From Natronolimnohabitans innermongolicus JCM 12255 (lineage in GTDB: Archaea; Halobacteriota; Halobacteria; Halobacteriales; Natrialbaceae), in NCBI RefSeq assembly GCF_000337215.1, contig NZ_AOHZ01000010.1, positions 1 through 33,080 of the forward strand: DNA of 33,080 nucleotides. Direction: 5' to 3'. Below, piece after piece: positions 10,700 through 26,947 of this stretch; the first letter of the stretch is position 1, and each line of letters opens with the position of its first letter. The notes beneath the pieces are model-generated. The model saw nothing but the letters and a program-made list of their open reading frames with translations, was not told the origin of the DNA and did not search any database. The translations under genes and the position numbers were made by a program.

Positions 10700-11638
10700 A
10701 TGCGCCACGATCACCTCATCACGAGCAAACAACTCTCGCGGGCGGACGTCGAGACCGTCCTCGACCGGGCGGCCGAGATCGACGCCGACCCCGACGCCGT
10801 CGCCGATCGGCACACGAACACGCTGCTCGGGTTGCTGTTTTTCGAACCGAGCACGCGGACGAAGATGAGCTTCGAGACCGCGATGAAACGCCTCGGCGGC
10901 GATATCGTCGACATGGGTTCGATCGAATCCTCGAGCGTCAAGAAAGGGGAGACGCTCGCCGACACGGTGCGGGTCATCGAGGGCTACGCCGACGCGCTCG
11001 TCTTGCGCCACCCCAAACAGGGCGCGGCAACGATGGCCAGCGAGTTCGTCGACGTGCCGCTGTTGAACGCCGGCGACGGGGCGGGCCACCATCCGACCCA
11101 GACGATGCTCGACCTCTATACGATCCGAGAGAACGCTGGGCTCGACGATCTCACGATCGGCATCATGGGCGATCTGAAGTACGGCCGGACGGTCCACTCG
11201 CTGGCCCACGCGCTGACGAACTTCGACACCCGCCAGCACTTCATCAGCCCGGAGAGCCTCCGGTTGCCCCGCGAGGTCGTCTACGACCTCCACCAGGCAG
11301 ACGAGAACGCGGCGATCCGCGAACACGACTCCCTCGAGGACGTGTTGCCCTCGCTGGACGTGCTCTACGTCACCCGCATCCAGCGCGAACGGTTCCCCGA
11401 CGAACAGGAGTACCAGAAGGTCGCCGGCGAGTACCAGATCGACGCCGAGACGCTCGAGGCTGCGAGCGACGACCTGACGATCATGCACCCGCTTCCCCGC
11501 GTCGACGAGATCGACCCCGAAATCGACGACACGGAGCACGCGGCGTACTTCGAGCAGGCACACAACGGCGTCCCGGTCAGGATGGCGCTGCTGGATCTGT
11601 TGTTGAGCGACGAGCGCGGAGGTGAGGACGATGAGTGA
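10700..11638 (+). CDS. pyrB: Aspartate carbamoyltransferase, catalytic subunit
   Basis: 312 aa from the ATG at 10700; the frame upstream adds 43 non-homologous residues. It condenses carbamoyl phosphate and aspartate to N-carbamoylaspartate, the committed step of pyrimidine synthesis. The carbamoyl-phosphate loop is [15 protein letters not shown], the mobile loop Ser/Lys is [13 protein letters not shown], and the other substrate motifs [16 protein letters not shown] and [10 protein letters not shown] are all present. It overlaps pyrI by 8 nt, so the two are translated from one mRNA. The promoter is not obvious; an AT-rich patch near 10577-10585 would give a leader of about 90 nt. Confidence 0.97.
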
Positions 11639-12143
11639 CGATTCGGACCGCCGCGATGACGAGGCGGGCGACGCACGGAACACGCGCGAGGATCACCAGC
11701 TGCGCGTCAGCAAGATCCGCGACGGGACCGTCATCGACCACGTCCGCGGCGGGCAGGCGCTGAACGTGCTGGCGATCCTCGGAATCGACGGCAGCGAGGG
11801 CGAGGAGCTCTCCGTCGGGATGAACGTCCCCTCGGACCGACTCGCGCGCAAGGACATCGTCAAGGTCGAGGGTCGCGAACTGAGTCAGGACGAGGTCGAC
11901 GTCCTCTCGCTGATCGCACCCGACGCGACGATCAACATCGTCCGCGACTACGAGGTGATCGAAAAACACCGCGTCGAGCGCCCCGAAGTGGTCGAAGGCG
12001 TTCTCTCCTGTCCCAATTCGGGCTGTATCACGACCGGTGGCGAGCCGGTCAGCTCCCGATTCGACGTCCTGAGCGACGGGGTCCGCTGTGCGTACTGCGA
12101 AACGATCGTTCGCGACGGGATCGCGGCGCTGATCGACACCTGA
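11631..12143 (+). CDS. pyrI: Aspartate carbamoyltransferase, regulatory subunit
   Basis: 170 aa from the ATG at 11631; a GTG at 11622 is possible but adds only three residues. It binds nucleotide effectors and holds PyrB trimers together. After a disordered acidic N-terminus (1-22), the allosteric domain begins at [15 protein letters not shown]. The zinc domain has its four cysteines in the CPNSGC (127, 132) and CAYC (153, 156) pairs, needed to contact PyrB. The ATG overlaps the pyrB stop, implying coupled translation and balanced subunit synthesis. Confidence 0.97.
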
Positions 12144-12230
12144 AACGCAACGGCTTCCGATTCGGACGCACTCGAGGGTGGCGTCGACGGTCACCATCGT
12201 CGACAGCTTCGCACGCCAAGCGACGCATCC

Positions 12231-12242
12231 AGAATATCTAAG
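12231..12242 (+). promoter_or_regulatory. TATA-like element before the 39-aa microprotein
   Basis: AGAATATCTAAG lies about 29-40 nt before the ATG at 12271, followed by a second AT-rich stretch AAGATAATAA at 12251-12260. Either could be the TATA box. The AT-rich block is isolated in GC-rich DNA, which supports transcription of the short gene. Confidence 0.45.
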
Positions 12243-12270
12243 TAGCTGTCAAGATAATAATCCCGTGTAC

Positions 12271-12390
12271 ATGTCGCGTACAGTCAAGATTCTGGTCGCC
12301 CTGTTCGTCATCGCCGTCCTCTGGAAAGTCGTAAGCAGCGGCTCTTCAGACGTCGATATCGAAGAGGTCGAGTACGAGCCCGTCGAGTAA
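12271..12390 (+). CDS. Single-span membrane microprotein (39 aa)
   Basis: 39 aa. It starts with a short basic head (MSRTVK), followed by one hydrophobic helix (about 7-21, ILVALFVIAVLWKVV) and an acidic tail ending EVEYEPVE. The positive-inside rule predicts N-in, with the acidic tail outside. Codon use is the same GC-rich pattern as in neighbouring genes, and a TATA-like element precedes it, so I judge it real despite its size. No family function is known to me; small single-pass proteins often modulate larger membrane complexes. Confidence 0.6.
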   Translation: MSRTVKILVALFVIAVLWKVVSSGSSDVDIEEVEYEPVE

Positions 12391-12499
12391 CTACGATACG
12401 ATACCGCCGCGGTCGTCTCACCGGTCGTGAGAGGATCGCGCCACCGTCTTTTCGGCCCGGTTCCGAACGGCTTACGGCGACGGCGCCATAGGCGACAGT

Positions 12500-13339
12500 A
12501 TGTACGGCGTCGTCACACGCAACGCTGAGGAGGTCCGCTGGCCGGAGTTCGACCGGGGCTTTTACGAGGTCAAAGACGTCACCGGACGGTCGGCCGAACC
12601 GATCGAAGACGGCGTGAACATGGTGTCCTGTTTCGGCGACAACGCCGCCGCGGACGCCGATCCCTCGCTGGTGCCCGTCGACGATCTGGGGCGTCCGGCC
12701 ACGCGCGACCGGAAGTACTTCGACTGGGCCTACATCTGCCCCTCCCGCGAGGACTACCGCAACGGGCTGTTCGACGTCATCGACGACTGCGTCGCGGAAA
12801 ACGAGGACGTCCGACTCGACGACATCGGCTTCCCGCGAGCGGAGTACTGTCGCTGTGGCATCTGCGAGAAAAACTTCGAAGAGAGCGCGTTCGAGGACCG
12901 CCTCGAGTGGCGCGCGAACGTCATCACGGAGTTCGTCGAGCAAGCGGCCGACCGGATCCCCGGCGACGTCTACATGACGCTTTACCCGGATCCGTATCCG
13001 GGCCACCTCTACGAACGCGCCGGCATCGACCTCGCGGCCGTCGAGGAGTACGTCGACGAGTTCGTCGTGCCGCTGTACGATACGGCCTACGAGACCACCT
13101 ACTGGCTCGAGACGATCGCGAAGGGATTCGAGACCGCGCTCGAGACGCCGTTCAGCATCGAAGTGTACGCGATCGACGTCGATATCGACAACCTGATCCA
13201 CGCCACCGAAGTCGCGTCGGCCTACGGCGAGTACGTCTACTTCGGCTACGAGGCGAGCAACGCGCGCGGCGCTCTGCGCCGGATGCGAGCCGACGAGCGA
13301 GATGGCGTCACCCACGGCGATCCGAACTCCGAGACGTAA
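12500..13339 (+). CDS. Putative TIM-barrel / glycoside-hydrolase-like protein
   Basis: 279 aa, probably cytoplasmic (no signal peptide). The stretch YICPSREDYRNGLFDVIDD...DDIGFPRAEYCRCGIC resembles hypothetical glycosidase families in which a 'CP..P.YR' strand is followed by an 'HxDxIRFP' strand and a cysteine-containing YCRC.IC loop. Later strands (DVYMTLYPDPYPGHLYERAGIDL, EFVVPLYDTAYETTYW) continue the barrel-like pattern. Three cysteines in CRCGIC plus Cys at the start of the motif may bind metal. Catalytic residues cannot be assigned, and the enzyme role is inference. Its ATG at 12500 is followed by no other likely start. Confidence 0.6.
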   Translation: MYGVVTRNAEEVRWPEFDRGFYEVKDVTGRSAEPIEDGVNMVSCFGDNAAADADPSLVPVDDLGRPATRDRKYFDWAYICPSREDYRNGLFDVIDDCVAENEDVRLDDIGFPRAEYCRCGICEKNFEESAFEDRLEWRANVITEFVEQAADRIPGDVYMTLYPDPYPGHLYERAGIDLAAVEEYVDEFVVPLYDTAYETTYWLETIAKGFETALETPFSIEVYAIDVDIDNLIHATEVASAYGEYVYFGYEASNARGALRRMRADERDGVTHGDPNSET

Positions 13340-13350
13340 GTGGACGGAGC

Positions 13351-13373
13351 GGCGTCGCTACGCCGTGCTTTTT
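13351..13373 (+). terminator. Hairpin plus T5 terminator
   Basis: GGCGT (13351-13355) and ACGCC (13360-13364) form a 5-bp stem with a CGCT loop, followed by GTGC and five T, 12-34 nt after the stop codon of the preceding gene. The layout resembles a bacterial intrinsic terminator; in archaea the T-tract is the key part. Confidence 0.5.
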
Positions 13374-13561
13374 CGAATCGATAGTGAGCCTCGAGGCCCC
13401 CTCGAGCGCTCGAGTCCCCAGTCCCGTACTCGCGGTTGTGACCGACGAGCGGCCGTACACGGCGTGGTAGCTGTCAAAAAGCGGATCAACTGAGCGGCGA
13501 CCGTCGTCCGGGTCGGCGTTCGAAAGCGAAAGCGCACGCTCGTGCCGACGGTCGGACGAAG

Positions 13562-14446
13562 TTACCGGGTGTCTCCGACGACGTCATCGTCATCGTCGTC
13601 ATCGAGGAGGTCGTCGTCGTCGTCGCCCATTAGTTCATCGTCATCGTCGTCGCTCATCATGCCGTCATCATCGTCGCCGATGAGATCGTCGTCATCATCG
13701 CCGATAAGGTCGTCATCGTCGTCGCTCATCATGCCGTCGTCGTCGCCGATGAGGTCGTCGTCATCATCGCCCATCACACCATCATCGTCGTCGCCGATGA
13801 GGTCGTCATCGTCGTCGCTCATCACACCATCATCGTCGTCGCCGATGAGGTCGTCATCGTCGTCGCTCATCATGCCGTCGTCGTCGTCACCGATGAGGTC
13901 GTCGTCATCGTCGCCCATCATGCCGTCGTCGTCATCGCCGATGAGATCATCGTCATCGTCGCCCATCATGCCGTCGTCGTCATCGCCGATAAGGTCGTCA
14001 TCGTCGCTCATCATACCGTCATCGTCGTCACCGATGAGGTCGTCGTCATCCCGGTTGGCACCAGCACCGGTACTGGCACCTGCCGCACCGGAACCGGCCG
14101 CATCAGTCTCTGTTGCACCGGTGGTCGTCGCGTCGGTACTCCCCGTCTCGGTCTCGAGTTCCGATTCAGCGCCGGAGCTCGTCGCCCCGCCGCCGGCGCT
14201 GCTCGAGAGATCGCTCTCGAGGTGAATCTCGTCGTCGGTCACGCGCGATACCGCCGTCTCCTGGAGTGGGTACGCGTCGTCGTCGGTTCCGCCCCAGCCG
14301 AGTTTCGCCTTGATCGTATCCGTAATTCCCGGATCCGGTTCGACGTGTGCGGTACCGTGTTCGACGTCCGCGACGAGGCCAACCTCTTCGCCGTTTGCGT
14401 TGACGACTGTCTTGCCGATGTCGTCGTCGGTAAACTCTGGGGACAT
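13562..14446 (-). CDS. PRC-barrel protein with poly-Asp 16-residue repeat tail
   Basis: 294 aa from the ATG at 14446 (a TTG three codons upstream is less likely). Residues 1-75 form a PRC-barrel-like domain (DDIGKTVVNANGEEVGLVADVEHG, then DTIKAKLGWG) seen in many haloarchaeal proteins. A Ser/Gly/Thr/Ala linker (about 80-130) leads to about 160 residues of tandem repeats with consensus D5-LIG-D4-GMM-S/G. Aspartate makes up well over half of the tail, giving extreme negative charge; it could bind Ca2+/Mg2+ or act as a charged brush. The gene is monocistronic. The exact repeat function is unknown. Confidence 0.85.
   Translation of the reverse strand: MSPEFTDDDIGKTVVNANGEEVGLVADVEHGTAHVEPDPGITDTIKAKLGWGGTDDDAYPLQETAVSRVTDDEIHLESDLSSSAGGGATSSGAESELETETGSTDATTTGATETDAAGSGAAGASTGAGANRDDDDLIGDDDDGMMSDDDDLIGDDDDGMMGDDDDDLIGDDDDGMMGDDDDDLIGDDDDGMMSDDDDDLIGDDDDGVMSDDDDDLIGDDDDGVMGDDDDDLIGDDDGMMSDDDDDLIGDDDDDLIGDDDDGMMSDDDDDELMGDDDDDLLDDDDDDDVVGDTR
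13575..14052 (-). repeat. Coding minisatellite, 48-bp unit
   Basis: About nine full or partial copies of a 48-bp unit encode D5-LIG-D4-G(M/V)M(S/G). Some copies are shortened (a D5-LIG unit alone, and one with D3 instead of D4), and the last copies degenerate to DELMG and DLLDD. Mixed GAC/GAT codon choice differs between copies, so these are not all very recent duplicates. Slippage and unequal exchange should make copy number variable between strains. Confidence 0.85.
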
Positions 14447-14473
14447 TGCACTCAACTAGACGGCCAAGACCCG

Positions 14474-14480
14474 GTTTATC
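14474..14480 (-). promoter_or_regulatory. TATA-like element of the PRC-barrel gene
   Basis: Minus-strand GATAAAC lies 28-34 nt before the ATG at 14446, fitting a leaderless or near-leaderless transcript. Confidence 0.45.
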
Positions 14481-14564
14481 GTGGTGCTTGCGGTGGCTTG
14501 CGGTTCGAGTGGTGATATTTCGGCCGCGATGGACGACGAGTCCGCCGTTTCGACCGATTCTGCC

Positions 14565-15332
14565 TCAGGCGTCGAACTCGGGATCGCGCCCCTCGAGGAA
14601 GGCCGTCACGCCCTCTTCGTGTTCCGGGGAGGTTCGGGCCTGGACCTGCAGGAGGTTCTCGTAGTCCAGCGCGTCGGCCCAGTGGCGAGTCATGTTCTCG
14701 TGCATCGCCTGTTTCATCGTGCCGATAATCGCCGTCGGGCCGGCCTGAAGCTGCGCGACGGTCTCTTCGACGCGCGCGTCGAGGTCGGCCGCCGGGACGG
14801 CGTCGTTGACGAGGTCGAGGTCGGCGGCGCGGTCGGCGTCGACGAACTCGCCGGTGAACGCGAGTTTCTTGGCGGCCCGCAGACCGACGATGTGGGGCAG
14901 CATGAACGTCCCGCCGGTGTCGGGAATCAGGCCGACGCGGACGAACGCACAGGAGAACGTGGCGTCCTCGGCGGCGTAGGCGATGTCGGCGAGCGCGACC
15001 AGCGCCAGCCCGGCCCCGACGGCGTCGCCGTTTACCTTCGCGACGATCGGCACGTGCGACTCGAGCATCGCCTCGACGACGCGGCCGAACGTCTCGGTGA
15101 CGGATTCGTAGGCCTCGCGGGAGCTAGCGGGGAAGTTTGCCAGCGACTGGAGATCGCCGCCGGCACAGAAGGCGTCGCCTTCGCCCGTGAGAACGATCGC
15201 GTCGTACTCGTCGGGCGAGGCGGTCTCGATCGTGTCGGCGAGTTCGAGTGCGAGTTCTTTCGTGATGGCGTTGCGCGCGTCGGGTCGGTCGAACGTGATC
15301 CGGAGGATTCCGTCGGTGCTGTCGACGTCCAT
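14565..15332 (-). CDS. Crotonase-family enoyl-CoA hydratase/isomerase (PaaG-like)
   Basis: 255 aa, normal length. It has the crotonase oxyanion-hole segments (DAFCAGGDL and GDAVGAGLALV) and the SCAFVRVGLIPDTGGTFMLPHIVGL stretch. The two catalytic Glu of true 2-enoyl-CoA hydratase are not present at the expected sites: the first aligns with Val (CAFVRVG) and the second with Lys (GLRAAKKLAFTG). The Asp in LIPDTGG matches PaaG/enoyl-CoA isomerase-type proteins, so a CoA-ester isomerase is more likely than a hydratase. It acts on fatty acyl or aromatic CoA esters in the cytosol. A strong TATA-like element lies 24-31 nt upstream. Confidence 0.9.
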   Translation of the reverse strand: MDVDSTDGILRITFDRPDARNAITKELALELADTIETASPDEYDAIVLTGEGDAFCAGGDLQSLANFPASSREAYESVTETFGRVVEAMLESHVPIVAKVNGDAVGAGLALVALADIAYAAEDATFSCAFVRVGLIPDTGGTFMLPHIVGLRAAKKLAFTGEFVDADRAADLDLVNDAVPAADLDARVEETVAQLQAGPTAIIGTMKQAMHENMTRHWADALDYENLLQVQARTSPEHEEGVTAFLEGRDPEFDA

Positions 15333-15355
15333 GGCCGACCGGTCTCAGCCGGGCC

Positions 15356-15363
15356 CTATAATC
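15356..15363 (-). promoter_or_regulatory. TATA box of the crotonase gene
   Basis: Minus-strand GATTATAG is 24-31 nt before the ATG at 15332, with no Shine-Dalgarno before the start. Confidence 0.55.
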
Positions 15364-15483
15364 GTACTCGTTGACAGCTGTTTCGTCTCCGTCCTCCCGA
15401 CCGCATCGGCGATTGGCCGGCGGCTGTCGTCGATCGACGTGGACGGAACGTAACGTGACGGACCGTTCGAACCCGAGTGCCGG

Positions 15484-16164
15484 TTAGTTCGACGGGACCG
15501 GCGGCGCGACGGTCTCGTCCTCGGAGACGTTCAGCTCCGACGTGACGAGCGCGCGGTAGGCCCGGCGAAGTCGCTCCGAGAGGGCCTGGTGAGAGATGTC
15601 GAGTTCCTCCGAGAGCTCCTGCATCGAGACCTCGCGGGGAATCTCGAAGTAGCCGTGATCGATCGCGGCGACCAGCGTCTCGTACTGGCGGGCGGTGAGC
15701 CCACACTGGGTGTGGCTCTCCTCCTCGAGGTCGAACAGGCGGACGATCGTCGGCGTGACGTCGAGTTCCTCGAGCCGGTCGTAGAGCGAGCTCACGCTCT
15801 CGCGGTCCGTAAACCGGATGCTCAGCAGCCACGTGCCGTTCGACGCCGAGGCGCTCAGGACGGTGCCGTTCTCCTCGATGATCAGTTCGAAGACGTCGAC
15901 CGTCTCCGGGTCGAACTCGAGGTCGTAGAGCCAGCGGTCGTCGTCGCTGTTGATCAGCGAGTAGTTGCCGATCGCCGACGCTCCGTCGAGCGCGTGCTCG
16001 ATCTCGTCTTGCGACGGCCCGGAGAGCCAGAGCCCGTGCCCGCTCGAGGCGATAACGCGCTCCATCTCACAGTTCAGTCCGGGAACAGCCTCGAACAGCT
16101 CGCCGGCTCCGGTTCCGTCGGCCGGAATCTCGATGTCTGCGATCGATGTCATGAGTTCATGCAT
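15484..16164 (-). CDS. HTH-10 family (Bat-like) transcriptional regulator
   Basis: 226 aa. The C-terminal 55-60 residues form the HTH-10 domain: GLTARQYETLVAAIDHGYFEIPREVSMQEL, then SEELDISHQALSERLRRAYRALV. The preceding half (about 30-150) is the bacterio-opsin-activator type N-terminal sensor, a beta-rich fold that probably binds a ligand. It lacks the GAF/PAS modules found in the longest members. It likely binds DNA near its target genes. Start: ATG at 16164, with an alternative at 16152; an AT-rich minus-strand GGTTATTG (16182-16189) is placed for either. It is 151 nt upstream of the crotonase gene in the same direction. Confidence 0.9.
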   Translation of the reverse strand: MHELMTSIADIEIPADGTGAGELFEAVPGLNCEMERVIASSGHGLWLSGPSQDEIEHALDGASAIGNYSLINSDDDRWLYDLEFDPETVDVFELIIEENGTVLSASASNGTWLLSIRFTDRESVSSLYDRLEELDVTPTIVRLFDLEEESHTQCGLTARQYETLVAAIDHGYFEIPREVSMQELSEELDISHQALSERLRRAYRALVTSELNVSEDETVAPPVPSN

Positions 16165-16302
16165 GCGTACTACGGGGACTCCAATAACCCCGTTTCCAAA
16201 GAGATTAGCAGCGACGAAGCCGAATTACACGACTTCTTATGCGTCTCGCAAGCCGGTCGTTCATAGGGTACAATCAGTTCGCTGGCAAAATCCGTCTGAG
16301 CG

Positions 16303-16868
16303 TCAGTGACGGCGGGGAACGCCGACGAGTAACTGGACGATCACGACGACGACGATCGTGATCGCCAGCAACGCGAGTGCGATCGGAACGATCGCCTCGA
16401 GTCCGCGGGAGATCCGCAACACTTCGATCCGCGTCGGCATCGTCCGCGGGTTGTACGCGACCATCATCGTCGCGCCGAACTCGCCGATCGCCCGCACGAA
16501 CGTCAGGACGATTCCGGCAGCGATCGCGTTGCGTGCAAGCGAGAGCGAGACCAACCGAACCGTCTCGAGCGGGCCGTAGCCCATCGTCCGCGCGGCCTCA
16601 TCGAGTCGCGGATCGATGTCGTCGAAGCCCGCGCGGGCGGTGACGACGAGGAAGTGGGGCGGCGACGAACGTCTGGGCGAGGACGACGCCGGCGTAGCTG
16701 TCGGTCAGCGGGACCCCGAGTCCCGCGGCGACCGAGCCGATCGGCGTGCACCGACCGACGACGGTCAACAGCGTGACGCCGCCGACGATCGGCGGCAAGA
16801 CGAGCGGGAGCAAGACGGCGGCCTCGAGGAGCCGCTTGTCCGGAAATAGAGCCGTTCGCGGAGTAGTT
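16303..16868 (-). pseudogene. Frameshifted molybdate/tungstate-type ABC permease (ModB/WtpB family)
   Basis: The two halves are in different frames. Codons in 16868-16655 give LLEAAVLLPLVLPPIVGG, then LTDSYAGVVLAQTFVAAP. Beyond about 16655 the homologous frame gives FLVVTARAGFDDIDPRL and the EAA loop EAARTMGYGPLETVRLVSLSL, continuing to the end (RAIGEFGATMMVAYNP, then the last membrane helix). One extra base near 16654 fits a +1 insertion in AAP-FLVV. A second shift probably lies near 16850 (LYF to PDKR). The N-terminal membrane helices are missing and no ATPase or binding protein is adjacent. It cannot encode a working transporter. Confidence 0.75.
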
Positions 16869-17032
16869 CGACGTCGGCGCCGATGACGGCGTCGGGGTGT
16901 TTCGTCCCCTCCTCGATCCGAGGCGGTATTTCAGTCGTCGGGAGTTCCCGTGGGTTGGGAAATCAGACTGTGGCCGGTCGGAATCCGATCGATCGATATC
17001 GCGGCTGCAGCCGCTTCGATTCGTCGTTCGAC

Positions 17033-17038
17033 AAAAAA
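17033..17038 (-). terminator. T6 terminator after the zinc microprotein
   Basis: Six A on the plus strand give T6 on the minus strand 6 nt after the stop of the 37-aa gene. A perfect 14-bp palindrome, GCGGCTGCAGCCGC (17001-17014), lies just beyond. Confidence 0.5.
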
Positions 17039-17043
17039 CGGAG

Positions 17044-17157
17044 TTAATGGAGCGACGCTTCACACCGCGGACAGATCCGCGACTGTATCGGAACGCGTCG
17101 CTGGCAGTCGGGGCACGTGATATCCTCCTCGACCTGAAACGGGTACGCTCGACTCAT
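17044..17157 (-). CDS. Zinc-ribbon microprotein (37 aa)
   Basis: 37 aa from the ATG at 17157. Two CPxC knuckles, CPDC (Cys15, Cys18) and CPRC (Cys29, Cys32), are spaced by 10 residues, a complete four-Cys zinc-binding site in a very short chain. The rest is MSRAYPFQVEEDIT before and EASLH after. A TATA-like element lies about 32-39 nt upstream and a T6 tract immediately downstream, forming a compact transcription unit. Haloarchaea have many zinc-finger microproteins, some involved in stress or biofilm behaviour; which role applies here is unknown. It could bind RNA, DNA or a protein partner. Confidence 0.75.
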   Translation of the reverse strand: MSRAYPFQVEEDITCPDCQRRVPIQSRICPRCEASLH

Positions 17158-17188
17158 GGCGCTCGTTCGAACGAACACCGACTACTAC

Positions 17189-17196
17189 CATAAGTT
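17189..17196 (-). promoter_or_regulatory. TATA-like element of the zinc microprotein
   Basis: Minus-strand ACTTATGG lies 32-39 nt before the ATG at 17157, giving a leader of only a few nucleotides. Confidence 0.4.
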
Positions 17197-17258
17197 ACGT
17201 CGCGCCCGAACGTGACTCTCCGCCCGGATACTCAGTCGCCGCTACTGAGTGGTCTCGA

Positions 17259-17900
17259 TCACCGATAGTTCTTGAACAGCAGCGCCCGGACGTCGTCTTT
17301 GGTCTGGACCTCCTCGGTCGTCCCGTCGGGGAGTTCGACGCTGTAGCGGTAGTCCGCCGACGACGATTCCTCCCACTTGTCGTCGTGGGTCTCGAGCAGG
17401 CTCATCATCTCGTCTAACATGTCGTCGTCGTCGGCCGCGCCGTCGCCGCTCTCGTCACCGCCGTCGTCGTCGGCCGCCTCGCTCGAGGGCGTCGCGTCGT
17501 CGGCAGTCGAATCGGCGACGTCGGTCTCCGCCACCGACTCGTCGTCACCGCCGTCGTCGCTTCCGCTCGAGTCGTCGTCAGCGTTGGATTCGTCCGCTGG
17601 TCCGTCCCCGTCCTCGTCCTCGATGTACGAGACCTCCTCGAGGTCCATCTCGCCCGCGGTATCGGGCCCTCGGTCGATCGCGGCGCCGACGTCGGCCGAG
17701 ACGTCGGCGGTCGCCGAAGCGTCCAGGTCGGCGTCGATGCTCACGTCGATGTCCGGGTTCCCCTCGAGATTGTCGATCAGATACTGGATGGCGTCTCGCT
17801 CGCGGACGAAGCCGTACTTGCCGACGACCTGTTCGGAGATTTCCGCGCGCAACTGCTGGATGACCGCGTACTGTTCGTCAGTGACCTCGAGCGTTTGCAT
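17259..17900 (-). CDS. Acidic three-part haloarchaeal protein of unknown function
   Basis: 213 aa. Residues 1-48 form a predicted helical domain (LEVTDEQYAVIQQLRAEISEQ, then a helix ending YLIDNL), reminiscent in size and pattern of ribbon-helix-helix or antitoxin-like DNA-binding N-termini, though not diagnostic. Residues 50-165 are an Asp/Ser/Ala-rich linker, probably disordered. The last 45 residues (ADYRYSVELPDGTTEEVQTKDDVRALLFKNYR in essence) look like a small beta-alpha domain. The ATG at 17900 is preceded by a TATA-like CAAATATC on the plus strand (17925-17932). No family function is recognised. Confidence 0.75.
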   Translation of the reverse strand: MQTLEVTDEQYAVIQQLRAEISEQVVGKYGFVRERDAIQYLIDNLEGNPDIDVSIDADLDASATADVSADVGAAIDRGPDTAGEMDLEEVSYIEDEDGDGPADESNADDDSSGSDDGGDDESVAETDVADSTADDATPSSEAADDDGGDESGDGAADDDDMLDEMMSLLETHDDKWEESSSADYRYSVELPDGTTEEVQTKDDVRALLFKNYR

Positions 17901-20491: not shown

Positions 20492-21355
20492 ATGACCGCG
20501 CTGACGCCGTTATCGGACCGCTTCGACGCTGACCGTCCCGTCCTCGGGATGGTTCACCTGCCGCCGCTACCCGGCTCGCCGGGCTACGACGGCGATCGGG
20601 AGGTCGTTCGGGCGCGCGCACTCGAGGCTGCTCGTCGCCTCGAGGCCGGGGGCGTCGACGGCATCGTCCTCGAGAACTTCGGCGACGCGCCGTTTTACCC
20701 CGACGACGTCCCGAAACACGTCGTCGCCGAGATGACCGCAATCGCGTCGCGGGTGGCGAATACCGTCGACGTTCCGCTCGGAATCAACGTACTCAGAAAC
20801 GACGCCGAGGCGGCGCTGGCGATCGCTGCGGCCGTCGGCGCGGATTTCATTCGAGTAAACGTCCACGTCGGGACCGCGGCGACCGATCAGGGTGTCCTCG
20901 AGGGGCGAGCCCACGAAACCGTTCGCCTGCGCGACCGCCTCGAGGCCGACGTCGCCATCCTCGCCGACGTGCACGTCAAACACGCGACTCCGGTCGGGGA
21001 CGCGCCAATCGAACGCGTCGCCCTCGAAACGATCGAGCGCGGCCGCGCGGACGGCGTCATCGTTTCGGGATCGGGAACCGGCTCCGAGGCCGAACTCGAG
21101 GACGTCGAACGAGTCGTAGACGCAATTTCGGACGGCGTCGAAATCGACGACCGTAGCTCGCCGCTCCCGCCGGTCTTCGTCGGTAGCGGCGTCACGAGCG
21201 AGACGGTCGGCGACTGCTTCGAAGCCGGCGCGGACGGCGTCATCGTCGGGACGGCGCTTAAAGAAAACGCGAAAACGACGAACCCCGTTTCGCGCGAACG
21301 CGTCGCGGCGCTCGTGTCGGCCGCTCGGACTCGAGACGCCGGCGACAGCGCGTAA
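20492..21355 (+). CDS. BtpA/SgcQ-family TIM-barrel protein
   Basis: 287 aa. The family start is clear (VLGMVHLPPLPGSPGYDG), as are the barrel strands DGIVLENFGDAPFY, PLGINVLRNDAEAALAIA, DFIRVNVHVGTAATDQG, LADVHVKHATPV and GVIVSGSGTGSEA, and the phosphate-binding end FVGSGVTSETV...DGVIVGTALKENAKT. The fold resembles (beta/alpha)8 phospho-sugar enzymes. BtpA was named for photosystem I assembly in cyanobacteria, which does not apply in archaea; a sugar or nucleoside catabolic role is more likely. No kinase partner is adjacent. It converges on the dehydrogenase gene (23-nt gap). Confidence 0.9.
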   Translation: MTALTPLSDRFDADRPVLGMVHLPPLPGSPGYDGDREVVRARALEAARRLEAGGVDGIVLENFGDAPFYPDDVPKHVVAEMTAIASRVANTVDVPLGINVLRNDAEAALAIAAAVGADFIRVNVHVGTAATDQGVLEGRAHETVRLRDRLEADVAILADVHVKHATPVGDAPIERVALETIERGRADGVIVSGSGTGSEAELEDVERVVDAISDGVEIDDRSSPLPPVFVGSGVTSETVGDCFEAGADGVIVGTALKENAKTTNPVSRERVAALVSAARTRDAGDSA

Positions 21356-21378: not shown

Positions 21379-22698
21379 CTACTCCCAGTTGTGGAGCGCG
21401 TCCCGGAAGATCGCTTTCGCGTCGTCCTCGGTCACCGGTCGCGGATTACAGCGCAGGAGTCGCTGCTGGGTTTCGACCGTCTGTCTTGCGAGCCAGTCGA
21501 CGTCCCCTTCGGTGATGTCCGCGAGCTCGGTGAGTCCACTCGGGATGACGTTCAGGTCCTGCTGGAGCCGAACGTACTCCTGGCGAGCCCGATCGGCCGC
21601 GTCGCGAGTACTCAGGCCGCCGGTGTCGGCGCCCAGCATCTCGGCGACTCTGACGAACCGTTCGGGATCGCTCGCGGCGTTGTAGCCGAGCGTGCTCGCG
21701 GGCGTGAGTACGGCGATGGTCTCGCCGTGGTAGGTGTGATAGCGGTTGCCGACGGGGTAGGCCATCGCGTGGGCGAGACTCGCGCCGGCCGTCAGTCCCG
21801 CGATCGCGCCGAACAGCGCGCCCTTGAGCATCGCCGATCGAGCTTCGAGGTCGTCGCCGTTGTGGACCGCGGTCCGGACGTTACCCGAGAGCAGTTCGAT
21901 GGCCTTCTCGGAGAACATCTCGGTGAGCTCCGTTCGTCCGGCGTAGACGGGGCGGGCCTGTGGATCCGAGGCGCGCAAGAGGCCGTCGAACGGGTGGGTC
22001 GTGTAGCCCTCGATGGCGTGACCGAGCGCGTCCATCGCCGTCTTCCCCGTGATGTCGGGGGGCAGCGTCGTCGTAAACGTCGGGTCGAGGACGGCCGCGT
22101 CCGCCCTGATGTGGTTGCTCGAGATCCCCTCCTTGATCTCCTTTTCCTCGACGGAGAAGATGGCGACGGGCGAGATTTCGGCGCCCGTCCCCGCGGTCGT
22201 CGGCATGAGCACCAGCGGCGGCCCCGACTCGGTCAGCGCCTCGCCCTCGCCCGTCGGTTCGGCGACGTAGTCGAGCACCTGTCCGCCGTTCGCGACGATC
22301 GCCCGCGTCGCCTTCGCGACGTCGATACAGCTCCCGCCGCCGAAGCCGACGTAGAAGTCGTAGCCGTCCTCGCCTTCGTTCTCGCGGACGAACTCGAGGC
22401 AGCTGTCGACGTTCTCGATCGACGGCTCGCGCTCGGCGCCGTCCCAGACGGTCACGTCGTAGCCCGCGTCCGCTATGTGGTCGGTCACGCGGTCGACGTG
22501 GCCGACCTCGACCAGTCCCTCGTCGGTGACGAGGAGTCCGTGCGGATCGTCGTCGCTGTCGACGCCCAGATCCGCGAGCTGGAAGCCGAGCTCTTCGACC
22601 GCGTCGCGACCGAATCGAATCTGGGGCATCTGGAGGTGCCAGACCGTCTCGGGCCCCAGTTCGTGCTCGGGAGCCGAAACCGACCGGTCGTAGCTCAT
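21379..22698 (-). CDS. Iron alcohol dehydrogenase, hydroxyacid-oxoacid transhydrogenase (HOT/ADHFE1) type
   Basis: 439 aa, long for the family as in HOT proteins. The NAD-binding motif is GFGGGSCIDVAKA and the nucleotide loop is LMPTTAGTGAEISPVAIF. Metal ligands are expected at Asp and His in MDALGHAIEGY, His in GASLAHAMAYPVG and His in YHTYHGETIA. HOT oxidises 4-hydroxybutyrate to succinic semialdehyde while reducing 2-oxoglutarate; other iron ADHs use NAD. It starts 1 nt after the stop of the upstream lactonase gene, so the two are co-translated. The substrate assignment is from family and context. Confidence 0.9.
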   Translation of the reverse strand: MSYDRSVSAPEHELGPETVWHLQMPQIRFGRDAVEELGFQLADLGVDSDDDPHGLLVTDEGLVEVGHVDRVTDHIADAGYDVTVWDGAEREPSIENVDSCLEFVRENEGEDGYDFYVGFGGGSCIDVAKATRAIVANGGQVLDYVAEPTGEGEALTESGPPLVLMPTTAGTGAEISPVAIFSVEEKEIKEGISSNHIRADAAVLDPTFTTTLPPDITGKTAMDALGHAIEGYTTHPFDGLLRASDPQARPVYAGRTELTEMFSEKAIELLSGNVRTAVHNGDDLEARSAMLKGALFGAIAGLTAGASLAHAMAYPVGNRYHTYHGETIAVLTPASTLGYNAASDPERFVRVAEMLGADTGGLSTRDAADRARQEYVRLQQDLNVIPSGLTELADITEGDVDWLARQTVETQQRLLRCNPRPVTEDDAKAIFRDALHNWE

Positions 22699-22699
22699 C

Positions 22700-23521
22700 T
22701 CACTGCCCCCACCCGTCGCGGATCGACTCGAACTGGTCGCTGTCGTGACCGTAGACGACCTCGGCGTCGTGGCGTCGCTCGAGCGATTTGATCCGCTGGA
22801 GGCTGTCGAACCACTCCGTCTTCCCCCAAAGCAGGCCGGCGCCGAGGGGCGCCTCGTCCTCGAAGTTCTCCGCGCGGTAGAGCTGATCGCCGGCGAAAAC
22901 GATCGTCCCCTCGTCGTCGAGGTGAATTACCGTCCCCGTCAGTCCCGGCGTGTGGCCGGGGAACCGAACGAACTCGAGGTCCTCGAAGTGCTGTTCGCGA
23001 TCCTGGTGAAGAATCTGCCAGTTCAGGTCGTGATCGAAGTCCTCGAGGATGTACGCGCCGCTTCCCTCGTCGGTCTTCGCGCTGTAGTAGGCGAACTTGA
23101 CCTCCTTCTCGTGGACGAAGATCGGGACGTCGGTGCCGTCGAAGAACTCGAGTCCGCCGGCGTGGTCCAGGTGGAGGTGCGTCTGGAACACGTAGTCGAT
23201 GTCGTCGATGCTATAGCCCGCTTCCTCGAGGTCGTCGTCGAGGCGGTGTTCGTGGGCGTCGTGGGGATAGAACGCCTGTAACAGTTCTTCGGGCCAGTGA
23301 CCCTCGAGGGCCTCGTGGTGGTTGCCGGTGTCCCAGAGGATCGTCCCCTCGGGGTGGTCGATGACGAGACTCCAGACGGGGATCTCACCGTAATCGACGT
23401 CCGGGTTCGGCTCGTCGTGGGTCCCCAACGTGTGGCCCTCGATCATGTAGTTCTGGTCGCACTCGAGACCGCCCCGATGCAGGACGTCGATCGTAGCGTC
23501 TACCATGTTATTATACCTCAT
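22700..23521 (-). CDS. MBL-fold lactonase, AiiA/AttM (N-acyl-homoserine lactonase) family
   Basis: 273 aa. The metal motif is HLHLDH (His115, His117, Asp119, His120), followed by the third ligand His in GHTPGL, the bridging Asp in AGDQLY and His in YGHDSDQF, all required for a dinuclear zinc lactonase. The first ATG (23521) fits a TATA-like ACTTTTG about 27 nt upstream; an ATG at 23506 is an alternative. Family members open gamma-butyrolactone or acyl-homoserine lactones. The immediate downstream partner is a HOT-type dehydrogenase for 4-hydroxybutyrate, the hydrolysis product of gamma-butyrolactone. Confidence 0.9.
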   Translation of the reverse strand: MRYNNMVDATIDVLHRGGLECDQNYMIEGHTLGTHDEPNPDVDYGEIPVWSLVIDHPEGTILWDTGNHHEALEGHWPEELLQAFYPHDAHEHRLDDDLEEAGYSIDDIDYVFQTHLHLDHAGGLEFFDGTDVPIFVHEKEVKFAYYSAKTDEGSGAYILEDFDHDLNWQILHQDREQHFEDLEFVRFPGHTPGLTGTVIHLDDEGTIVFAGDQLYRAENFEDEAPLGAGLLWGKTEWFDSLQRIKSLERRHDAEVVYGHDSDQFESIRDGWGQ

Positions 23522-25159: not shown

Positions 25160-26947
25160 TTACGCGTCATATTCGTCCGGTACAGCCCGCCTCGCCAGCA
25201 GATAGCCGGTCGCACCGAGACTCACGACGGCGCCGACGAGTCCGGGACCTGGGACGCCATCGCTGCTCGAGTCGTCGGTACCGAGTTCGTCGCTTTCGTT
25301 CCCCTCGTCTGCCGATCCATCGGAGTCGGCCTCACCAGTCGTCGTATTTTCGTCTTCCAGCGATTCCTCGGGTTCCATTTCTTTTTCGAATTCCTCGATC
25401 GGATACGTCGCCTCGAATGGGTCGTCGCTCGTCGTCACGTCGGCAAACGCGTCAGCTGGTCTATCCTGCCACGCTAATGCCGGATAGATGTCGGTCGTTG
25501 TCCAGACCTCACCGAAGTCGAACGCCTCGAGCGACTCGGCTGCATCGCTGCCAGTTATCGCGGCAGTTTCGAGACCGTGGTCGTCCGATACAGTCGGCGA
25601 TGTCGTTAGCCCGGTTTCCGCGACGCCCCAGTAGCTAGTGACGACCACACCAGTCTCGAACTGTTCGTCGTCGATAATTGCGTTCTTGCCGACGAGCCCG
25701 CCAACGCTCTCGTCGTCTTCCCACTCGAGCGTACTGATTGCATACGAGCGTTCGACTGTGCCCGTATACACGCTCGATCCGCTTTCGTTGATATTTCTCC
25801 CGACGAGCCCGCCGACGTCGGTACTCACGGAGTCGTCGCGCCCAGTCACGGCACCCGTCGCATAACAGTCGACGATCGTGTCCCGGTTCGTGCCGACGAG
25901 CCCGCCAACGTAATCCTGTCCGGTCGTCTCCCCCGTCGCGTAGCTCTCCACGATCGTACCCCGATTGATGCCAACGAGTCCGCCGGCGTTTCGACCACCG
26001 GTTACCTCTCCGGTGGCGACCGACCGACGAACCTCCGTTCCGATGTGCTGTCCGATGAGTCCGCCGACCCGACTGTTGATCTCGCCGTCCAGTGTGTTGA
26101 CCCGAACGTCGGCGATGGAATCGATGACAGCCCCCTCGCTGTCAGTTTTTCCGACGAGCCCACCGACGACGCTGCTGCTCAACACCTCACCCGTCGCACT
26201 CGAGTCACTGATGACGGTTTCGGACCTGTCGCCCCGCCACGGCGTGTGACGGCCGACGAGGCCACCGGCGTCACCGGTTGTCGCCGTCAGGTCGACATCT
26301 GCGTGGGCCCGCCTGACTGGTCCATCGCTGTTCCACCCGACAATACCTCCGACGTGTCGATCGGCAGTAATAGTCACGTTCGCTGTCGTGTCCTCGATAA
26401 CGGAACCCACTCCAGCGTTGCCGACGATACCGCCGATCTGATCGGAGCCGGAGATTGTCCCAGAAACGGACACATTCGAGATCGTTCCAGCCGTGAAATC
26501 GCCCACGAGCCCACCGACCTTGTCATCTCCAGTGATGTCAACGTCCACCAGATTGAGATCCCAGATGTCGACGCCCTGGCAGTCCCAGAACAGTCCAATT
26601 TCTGACTCAGTCGGTCGATCAATCGTCAGCCCACGGATCGTGTGTCCGTTCCCATCGAAATTTCCTCGAAACCGGTCCCTGTCGTCACCGATCGGATGAA
26701 CGTTATCGACCGCAGAAATATCGATATCATCGACGAGCCGATAGTAGGCTCCGCGTTCGCCGCCAACCGATAGTAACTGTTTGGCGGTCGAAATTTCGTA
26801 GGGAAACAGTCTGGATCCGTCTCCGCCGTCGAACGGATTCTCACCGTCTTCGTCAGCGGCCCCCACCACGCACCCGGTAACCGCTACCCCGCCAAGGGTT
26901 GCCACCGCAGTCGTCTGTACGAACCGTCGTCGGTCGGTTTTCTCCAT
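25160..26947 (-). CDS. GLUG-repeat surface protein with Tat lipobox and C-terminal anchor
   Basis: 595 aa. A Tat motif (TDRRRFVQTTA) is followed by a lipobox-like VTGC. From about residue 125 to 440 there are ten GLUG units, each containing VGGLVG or a close variant followed by a short TGxxTG-type beta-coil, so the body is a beta-helix. An acidic stalk (about 520-560) leads to PGPGLVGAVVSLGATGYLLARR, a membrane helix with a basic end like PGF-CTERM/archaeosortase sorting tails, but with PGPG. It is a candidate adhesin or cell-surface binding protein. The promoter region is very AT-rich. GC content of the gene looks lower than that of its neighbours. Confidence 0.85.
   Translation of the reverse strand: MEKTDRRRFVQTTAVATLGGVAVTGCVVGAADEDGENPFDGGDGSRLFPYEISTAKQLLSVGGERGAYYRLVDDIDISAVDNVHPIGDDRDRFRGNFDGNGHTIRGLTIDRPTESEIGLFWDCQGVDIWDLNLVDVDITGDDKVGGLVGDFTAGTISNVSVSGTISGSDQIGGIVGNAGVGSVIEDTTANVTITADRHVGGIVGWNSDGPVRRAHADVDLTATTGDAGGLVGRHTPWRGDRSETVISDSSATGEVLSSSVVGGLVGKTDSEGAVIDSIADVRVNTLDGEINSRVGGLIGQHIGTEVRRSVATGEVTGGRNAGGLVGINRGTIVESYATGETTGQDYVGGLVGTNRDTIVDCYATGAVTGRDDSVSTDVGGLVGRNINESGSSVYTGTVERSYAISTLEWEDDESVGGLVGKNAIIDDEQFETGVVVTSYWGVAETGLTTSPTVSDDHGLETAAITGSDAAESLEAFDFGEVWTTTDIYPALAWQDRPADAFADVTTSDDPFEATYPIEEFEKEMEPEESLEDENTTTGEADSDGSADEGNESDELGTDDSSSDGVPGPGLVGAVVSLGATGYLLARRAVPDEYDA

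What the first reader, a model, noticed from the sequence alone, without database searches (positions are those of the whole stretch)
21379..23521. Two-gene operon pairing an AttM-type lactonase with a HOT-type iron dehydrogenase
The MBL protein has all ligands of AiiA/AttM lactonases and its stop lies 1 nt before the ATG of a HOT/ADHFE1-type iron dehydrogenase. In Agrobacterium the blc (att) operon pairs a lactonase of this family with an iron alcohol dehydrogenase to turn gamma-butyrolactone into 4-hydroxybutyrate and then succinic semialdehyde. The same two enzyme families fused into a haloarchaeal operon suggest an archaeal route for lactone or 4-hydroxybutyrate use, possibly with quorum-quenching side activity. 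Substrates are inferred, not shown.
Basis: partly seen in the sequence, partly recalled or inferred. Interest (0 to 1): 0.72.

Follow-up and report, generated by a model that had tools for sequence, protein, structure and literature searches.

The report
Haloarchaeal lactonase and iron dehydrogenase operon
Many salt-loving archaea carry two genes locked end to end, one probably opening a small ring-shaped ester (a lactone) and the next probably oxidising the acid this releases; it looks like an archaeal counterpart, built from different parts, of a known bacterial pathway, but no enzyme activity has been tested.

Summary
A lactonase-type metallo-beta-lactamase-fold protein (273 aa, 22700-23521 minus) ends 1 nt before the ATG of an iron alcohol dehydrogenase (439 aa, 21379-22698 minus). 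Of 292 haloarchaeal genomes, 57 have the dehydrogenase orthologue and 52 the lactonase; 49 have both, always adjacent, with stop and start -13 to +3 nt apart. In three genomes (two genera; one is Halobacterium hubeiense) the next gene is a succinate-semialdehyde dehydrogenase.

The labels need correction. The lactonase is nearest the GcL/AhlS lactonases, not AttM/BlcC. The dehydrogenase groups with HOT proteins rather than with Agrobacterium BlcB; it has the first of the two inserts said to define HOT but lacks the second, so it is a HOT-like sister clade. Lactonase plus iron-dehydrogenase pairs also occur in Agrobacterium, Deinococcus, Actinomycetospora, Rubrobacter and Pseudomonas, with different subfamily combinations and gene orders, so the pairing probably arose several times.

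Best reading: lactone to hydroxy acid (probably gamma-butyrolactone to 4-hydroxybutyrate), then to succinic semialdehyde, finished by a dehydrogenase usually encoded elsewhere. Substrates and hydride acceptor are inferred. A new variant of a known kind.

The parts
22700..23521 (-). Lactonase of the metallo-beta-lactamase fold, GcL/AhlS-like AHL-lactonase family; 273 aa as called, probably 268 aa from the conserved start at 23506
   Evidence: Pfam Lactamase_B 1.4e-20; NCBIfam AhlS 2.6e-51, below its cut-off; PDB GcL-type 6cgy 1.4e-41; model nearest GcL, E 7e-23; ligands invariant in 31 relatives
23162..23179 (-). HLHLDH metal-binding motif (H115-H120) of the lactonase
   Evidence: sequence and alignment
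21379..22698 (-). Iron-containing alcohol dehydrogenase, HOT-like clade with HOT insert 1 only, 439 aa
   Evidence: Pfam Fe-ADH 1.4e-40 and ADH_Fe_C 6.7e-32; insert analysis; tree; model pLDDT 90.5
21925..21999 (-). Coding region of HOT insert 1 (residues 234-258, THPFDGLLRASDPQARPVYAGRTEL), a loop between two helices
   Evidence: 25 residues, as in most two-insert HOT proteins, against 7-9 in BlcB and similar dehydrogenases; helices H214-233 and H257-279 flank it in the model
22696..22702 (-). Junction: lactonase stop (22700-22702), one base (22699), dehydrogenase ATG (22696-22698)
   Evidence: gap -13 to +3 nt in all 49 genomes with the pair

Best explanation
The two genes are a co-translated catabolic module working on consecutive steps. 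The GcL/AhlS-like metallo-lactonase opens a small unsubstituted lactone, most likely gamma-butyrolactone, to the omega-hydroxy acid (4-hydroxybutyrate). The HOT-like iron dehydrogenase oxidises that to succinic semialdehyde, passing hydride either to free NAD(P)+ or, as in HOT, via bound NAD to 2-oxoglutarate. A succinate-semialdehyde dehydrogenase, in the operon in a few genomes and elsewhere in most, makes succinate. Shown by computation: families, catalytic residues, conserved linkage, occasional third gene, recurring pairing in bacteria. Inferred: co-translation, substrates, direction, hydride acceptor.
For: 49 of 57 genomes with the dehydrogenase have the lactonase adjacent, junction -13 to +3 nt; the two proteins' distances correlate (Mantel r 0.84, 0 of 2000 permutations as high). 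The pair keeps together on chromosomes and plasmids while other neighbours change. A semialdehyde dehydrogenase (86-88% identical to the H. hubeiense one in the other two) lies directly downstream in three genomes of two genera. The window's genome has a 67% identical one elsewhere, and 48 of 57 dehydrogenase genomes have one against 140 of 235 others (p 0.0004, uncorrected for relatedness). Lactonase plus iron-dehydrogenase neighbours of other subfamilies recur: Agrobacterium and Pantoea blcABC, Deinococcus HOT-AttM 15 bp apart, Actinomycetospora lactonase-HOT, Rubrobacter HOT-lactonase, Pseudomonas. Literature: the blcABC operon degrades gamma-butyrolactone to 4-hydroxybutyrate and semialdehyde (PMC5924552); mammalian HOT oxidises 4-hydroxybutyrate with 2-oxoglutarate (PMC5125639); Haloferax mediterranei makes 4-hydroxybutyrate polymer from gamma-butyrolactone (PMC3880725).
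Against: No activity is known for any haloarchaeal member found here. The dehydrogenase lacks HOT insert 2 and lies on a long branch (1.08), so its substrate could have shifted. The semialdehyde dehydrogenase is linked in only 3 of 57 genomes and is common without the pair. Each partner is sometimes alone (8 dehydrogenase-only, one of them at a contig end; 3 lactonase-only). The best NCBIfam dehydrogenase match is choline dehydrogenase GbsB, far below its cut-off.
Confidence: 0.55

Rival explanations
1. Same two-step chemistry on a different ring: for example delta-valerolactone to 5-hydroxyvalerate to the semialdehyde acid, or a substituted gamma-lactone from sugar or fatty-acid breakdown.
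For: Lactonases of this fold hydrolyse gamma-, delta- and epsilon-lactones in some cases (PMC12258673); a 5-hydroxyvalerate dehydrogenase subfamily (CpnD) exists in the same dehydrogenase family (PMC5125639); the dehydrogenase is divergent from characterised 4-hydroxybutyrate enzymes; AMP-binding ligases lie near some pairs.
Against: The dehydrogenase groups with HOT, whose known substrate is 4-hydroxybutyrate; the downstream gene in three genomes is annotated succinate-semialdehyde dehydrogenase or is its orthologue.
Confidence: 0.22
2. The unit runs in reverse or protects: the dehydrogenase reduces succinic semialdehyde to 4-hydroxybutyrate, and the lactonase keeps the acid from cyclising or clears lactone formed spontaneously.
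For: Many iron dehydrogenases act as aldehyde reductases (general knowledge; lactaldehyde reductase and sulfoacetaldehyde reductase models match); the same genes would be linked.
Against: Downstream oxidising dehydrogenase in three genomes; the best-studied bacterial analogue, blc, is catabolic (PMC5924552).
Confidence: 0.1
3. Quorum quenching or signal-lactone scavenging is the main role, the dehydrogenase acting on homoserine-lactone-derived or unrelated alcohols.
For: Nearest characterised lactonases (GcL, AhlS, AiiA) are AHL-lactonases.
Against: Conserved coupling to a dehydrogenase whose nearest characterised kin use 4-hydroxybutyrate; even BlcC, which cleaves AHLs, sits in a gamma-butyrolactone operon whose induction does not respond to AHLs (PMC5924552).
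Confidence: 0.06
4. Both names mislead: the hydrolase acts on a non-lactone ester and the dehydrogenase on another alcohol such as choline or a diol.
For: Top NCBIfam dehydrogenase score is choline dehydrogenase GbsB (244 bits, cut-off 550); top solved structures are methanol and 1,3-propanediol dehydrogenases.
Against: GbsB score is under half its cut-off; HOT-type insert 1 and tree position; full lactonase ligand set including the AiiA-type Tyr.
Confidence: 0.07

Closest known systems
Agrobacterium blcABC (attKLM) operon
   Same: Metallo-lactonase plus iron alcohol dehydrogenase, with semialdehyde dehydrogenase in the operon; proposed chemistry identical
   Different: BlcB has neither HOT insert and falls in another part of the family tree; BlcC is on the other side of a starred branch from the haloarchaeal lactonases; gene order differs (A-B-C against lactonase-dehydrogenase); no linked BlcR-type repressor was seen; semialdehyde dehydrogenase usually unlinked
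Deinococcus wulumuqiensis HOT-AttM pair (plasmid pDrdI)
   Same: HOT-group dehydrogenase and lactonase 15 bp apart
   Different: Two-insert HOT with a BlcC-type lactonase, reversed order, bacterial
Actinomycetospora and Rubrobacter lactonase/HOT neighbours
   Same: Lactonase that groups on the GcL/AhlS and haloarchaeal side of the tree next to HOT
   Different: HOT with both inserts; orders differ between the two; bacterial
HOT (ADHFE1, cd08190)
   Same: Insert 1, metal ligands, clade with two-insert HOT (support 94); orthologues are annotated by RefSeq as HOT
   Different: Lacks the 13-residue insert 2 said to be present in all HOT proteins (PMC5125639)
GcL / AhlS quorum-quenching lactonases
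   Same: Fold, ligands, about 31% identity, best structural match
   Different: AhlS model score 174 against cut-off 475; operon partner; biological substrate unknown

Membership tests
AHL-lactonase family of the metallo-beta-lactamase superfamily (AiiA/GcL/AttM-like) | HxHxDH ... H ... D ... Y ... H ligand set | tested here: met
   H115, H117, D119, H120, H190, D212, Y215, H259 invariant in 31 relatives
AHL-lactonase family of the metallo-beta-lactamase superfamily (AiiA/GcL/AttM-like) | Lactone-hydrolysing activity | not testable with these tools
   needs enzyme assay
AttM/BlcC lactonase | Score above the curated AttM equivalog cut-off and grouping with BlcC | tested here: not met
   117.8 bits against cut-off 390; separated from BlcC by a starred branch
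AhlS lactonase | Score above the curated AhlS equivalog cut-off | tested here: not met
   174.3 bits against 475, though it is the best-scoring lactonase model
HOT (hydroxyacid-oxoacid transhydrogenase, cd08190) | First insert, about 19 residues, between alpha5 and alpha6 | tested here: met
   25-residue segment as in most two-insert HOTs, against 7-9 in BlcB and similar dehydrogenases; loop between helices 214-233 and 257-279
HOT (hydroxyacid-oxoacid transhydrogenase, cd08190) | Second insert, 13 residues, between alpha8 and alpha9 | tested here: not met
   6 residues against 19 or more in two-insert HOTs, in every pair dehydrogenase checked; definition from PMC5125639
HOT (hydroxyacid-oxoacid transhydrogenase, cd08190) | Grouping with HOT in a family tree made without the insert columns | tested here: met
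   clade of HOT + pair dehydrogenases + haloarchaeal paralogues, SH-aLRT 94, just under the starred level; quick tree
HOT (hydroxyacid-oxoacid transhydrogenase, cd08190) | 4-hydroxybutyrate:2-oxoglutarate transhydrogenase activity | not testable with these tools
   needs enzyme assay
blcABC gamma-butyrolactone operon | Linked lactonase, iron dehydrogenase and semialdehyde dehydrogenase | tested here: inconclusive
   all three linked in 3 of 57 genomes, only the pair in the window and most others
blcABC gamma-butyrolactone operon | Orthologous BlcB and BlcC proteins | tested here: not met
   different subfamilies in both trees

The most novel reading that the evidence does not exclude
A haloarchaeal lactone-to-succinate pathway, assembled separately from the bacterial blc operon, that uses a new subfamily of iron dehydrogenase (HOT insert 1 without insert 2), possibly a hydride-transferring transhydrogenase that needs no free NAD and passes 2-hydroxyglutarate to one of the genome's six FAD-oxidase_C family oxidoreductases.
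Probability: 0.3. Interest if true: 0.6.

Novelty: new variant of a known kind. Interest (0 to 1): 0.45.

Why it matters
Haloferax mediterranei is fed gamma-butyrolactone to make 4-hydroxybutyrate-containing bioplastic (PMC3880725), and this operon names candidate genes in haloarchaea for the lactone-opening and hydroxy-acid-removing steps; whether H. mediterranei itself carries them was not checked here. It gives a clean test of what separates HOT transhydrogenases from ordinary iron dehydrogenases, since this clade has one of the two HOT inserts. The pairing of lactonases and iron dehydrogenases from different subfamilies in several lineages suggests that many proteins annotated as quorum-quenching lactonases may have a carbon-catabolic role.

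Tried and rejected
TctA transporter just upstream as a third member: rejected. It is in 80 of 81 family genomes and lies elsewhere than the pair in several of them, so the linkage is positional. BtpA gene (20492-21355) downstream: opposite strand, shared only by loci with the same synteny. A stable third gene: none found; neighbours differ (kinases, nucleotidyltransferases, AMP ligases and others). Co-occurrence with semialdehyde dehydrogenase as strong proof: only modest enrichment, and the gene is common anyway. Literature searches for haloarchaeal HOT and for a joint lactonase/transhydrogenase report returned nothing. The own-genome paralogue of the lactonase (60% identical) has no adjacent dehydrogenase and is not part of the unit.

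Full report
What is there. The window is from a haloarchaeal genome (G000, 4.59 Mb; window = contig C10). On the minus strand a 273-aa lactonase-type protein (22700-23521) is followed, one base after its stop, by a 439-aa iron alcohol dehydrogenase (21379-22698). Pfam gives Lactamase_B (1.4e-20) and Fe-ADH (1.4e-40) plus ADH_Fe_C. Most orthologues of the first protein start at the Met that is residue 6 here, so translation probably starts at 23506.

Is it more than chance? In 292 haloarchaeal genomes searched with each protein, 57 have a dehydrogenase orthologue (72% identity or more; one is cut by a contig end) and 52 a lactonase orthologue (70% or more). In 49 genomes both occur and in all 49 they are adjacent; the distance from stop to start is -13 to +3 nt. 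Co-occurrence by Fisher test is 2e-43, not corrected for relatedness; distances of the two proteins correlate (Mantel r 0.84, 0 of 2000 permutations as high). Clean losses of one partner exist: G255 and G167 keep the dehydrogenase next to tctA without the lactonase, G260 keeps the lactonase without the dehydrogenase. Named carriers include Natronococcus occultus (plasmid), Halobacterium hubeiense (plasmid), two Haladaptatus plasmids, Natribaculum breve, Halorubrum vacuolatum and Natrinema limicola.

Surroundings. Apart from synteny shared by close relatives, the pair is the only conserved unit. The TctA gene upstream in the window is a core gene of the family (80 of 81 genomes) and lies elsewhere than the pair in several genomes, so it is not part of the module. 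In H. hubeiense and two further genomes (G074, G241) a semialdehyde dehydrogenase follows directly; the H. hubeiense one is annotated NAD-dependent SSADH and the other two are 86-88% identical to it. The window genome has a 67% identical enzyme on another contig. Presence of that enzyme is modestly enriched in genomes with the dehydrogenase (48 of 57 against 140 of 235), without correction for relatedness. N. occultus has a TIGR00366-family gene upstream; TIGR00366 is, from my own knowledge, a short-chain fatty acid transporter-like family.

What the lactonase is. All ligands of the AiiA family are present and invariant, including the active-site Tyr. Best curated model is AhlS (174 bits; AttM 118; neither reaches its cut-off). 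Best solved relatives by sequence and by predicted structure are GcL-type lactonases, about 31% identical (model pLDDT 78, pTM 0.84). In a small tree a starred branch (98/96) puts the haloarchaeal proteins with GcL/AhlS and two actinobacterial proteins, apart from BlcC/AttM. The AttM-type label is therefore imprecise.

What the dehydrogenase is. The four metal ligands and GGGS motif are kept. A published survey states that all HOT proteins have two inserts, 19 and 13 residues (PMC5125639). Every haloarchaeal pair dehydrogenase checked has insert 1 (25-residue segment against 7-9 in BlcB and similar dehydrogenases) and none has insert 2 (6 residues against 19 or more in two-insert HOTs). A model (pLDDT 90.5, pTM 0.90) shows insert 1 as a loop between helices 214-233 and 257-279 and a tight turn where insert 2 would be. 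In a tree built without the insert columns the pair dehydrogenases are one clade (100), grouping with two-insert HOT and a haloarchaeal paralogue group (94), away from BlcB; the clade's stem is long (1.08). RefSeq names orthologues hydroxyacid-oxoacid transhydrogenase. I call it HOT-like; by the published two-insert definition it fails one defining feature.

Pairs elsewhere. Lactonase plus iron-dehydrogenase neighbours also occur as blcABC in Agrobacterium and Pantoea, as dehydrogenase-AttM in Thioclava, as HOT followed 15 bp later by an AttM-type lactonase in Deinococcus wulumuqiensis, as lactonase-HOT in Actinomycetospora, HOT-lactonase in a Rubrobacter MAG, and dehydrogenase-lactonase in Pseudomonas vranovensis and a Pelagibacteraceae genome. 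The combinations of subfamily and gene order differ, which suggests the pairing was made more than once. That is inference from two small trees and gene order, but it is the best argument that the enzymes act on consecutive intermediates. HOT genes also sit on plasmids of the tetrahydrofuran degrader Rhodococcus ruber YYL and of Mycobacterium dioxanotrophicus, next to FAD/Fe-S oxidoreductases; tetrahydrofuran breakdown is proposed to run through gamma-butyrolactone and 4-hydroxybutyrate (PMC7464125).

Mechanism. Most likely: lactone opening, then oxidation of the omega-hydroxy acid to a semialdehyde acid, finished by a dehydrogenase usually encoded elsewhere. Gamma-butyrolactone to 4-hydroxybutyrate to succinic semialdehyde is the leading case because of blc (PMC5924552), mammalian HOT (PMC5125639) and the use of gamma-butyrolactone as a 4-hydroxybutyrate source by Haloferax mediterranei (PMC3880725). 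Substrate, direction and hydride acceptor are not shown. A delta-lactone or other ring is the main rival.

Novelty. Each part and the pairing principle are known in bacteria. I found no paper describing the haloarchaeal operon in the open-access library; most subscription papers are not in it. The archaeal operon with its one-insert HOT-like clade is a new variant of a known kind.

Noticed in passing
L084 about 11186-17856 (G087); G175 C1:3001001-3040366; G224 C1:520666-643376: The tctA gene that lies upstream of the pair in the window is split at about codon 288-300 in three genomes. In G087 the 5.4 kb insert (48.5% GC) encodes a tyrosine recombinase-like protein, suggesting an integrative element with an attachment site inside tctA.
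   Followed up: partly
G000 C14:63626-64417 (L135): A second lactonase 60% identical to the window's, belonging to a widespread haloarchaeal paralogue group without an adjacent iron dehydrogenase.
   Followed up: partly
L072 3968-8112; L232 1477-4263: Actinobacterial HOT genes on ether-degradation-associated plasmids are followed by a FAD/Fe-S oxidoreductase, a plausible 2-hydroxyglutarate recycler.
   Followed up: no
L074, L075, L155, L156: A separate haloarchaeal dehydrogenase family, about 43% identical, also has HOT insert 1 without insert 2 and is annotated HOT.
   Followed up: partly
window 25160-26947 (-): 595-aa protein with many GLVG-type repeats and a C-terminal hydrophobic tail; looks like a surface protein.
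   Followed up: no
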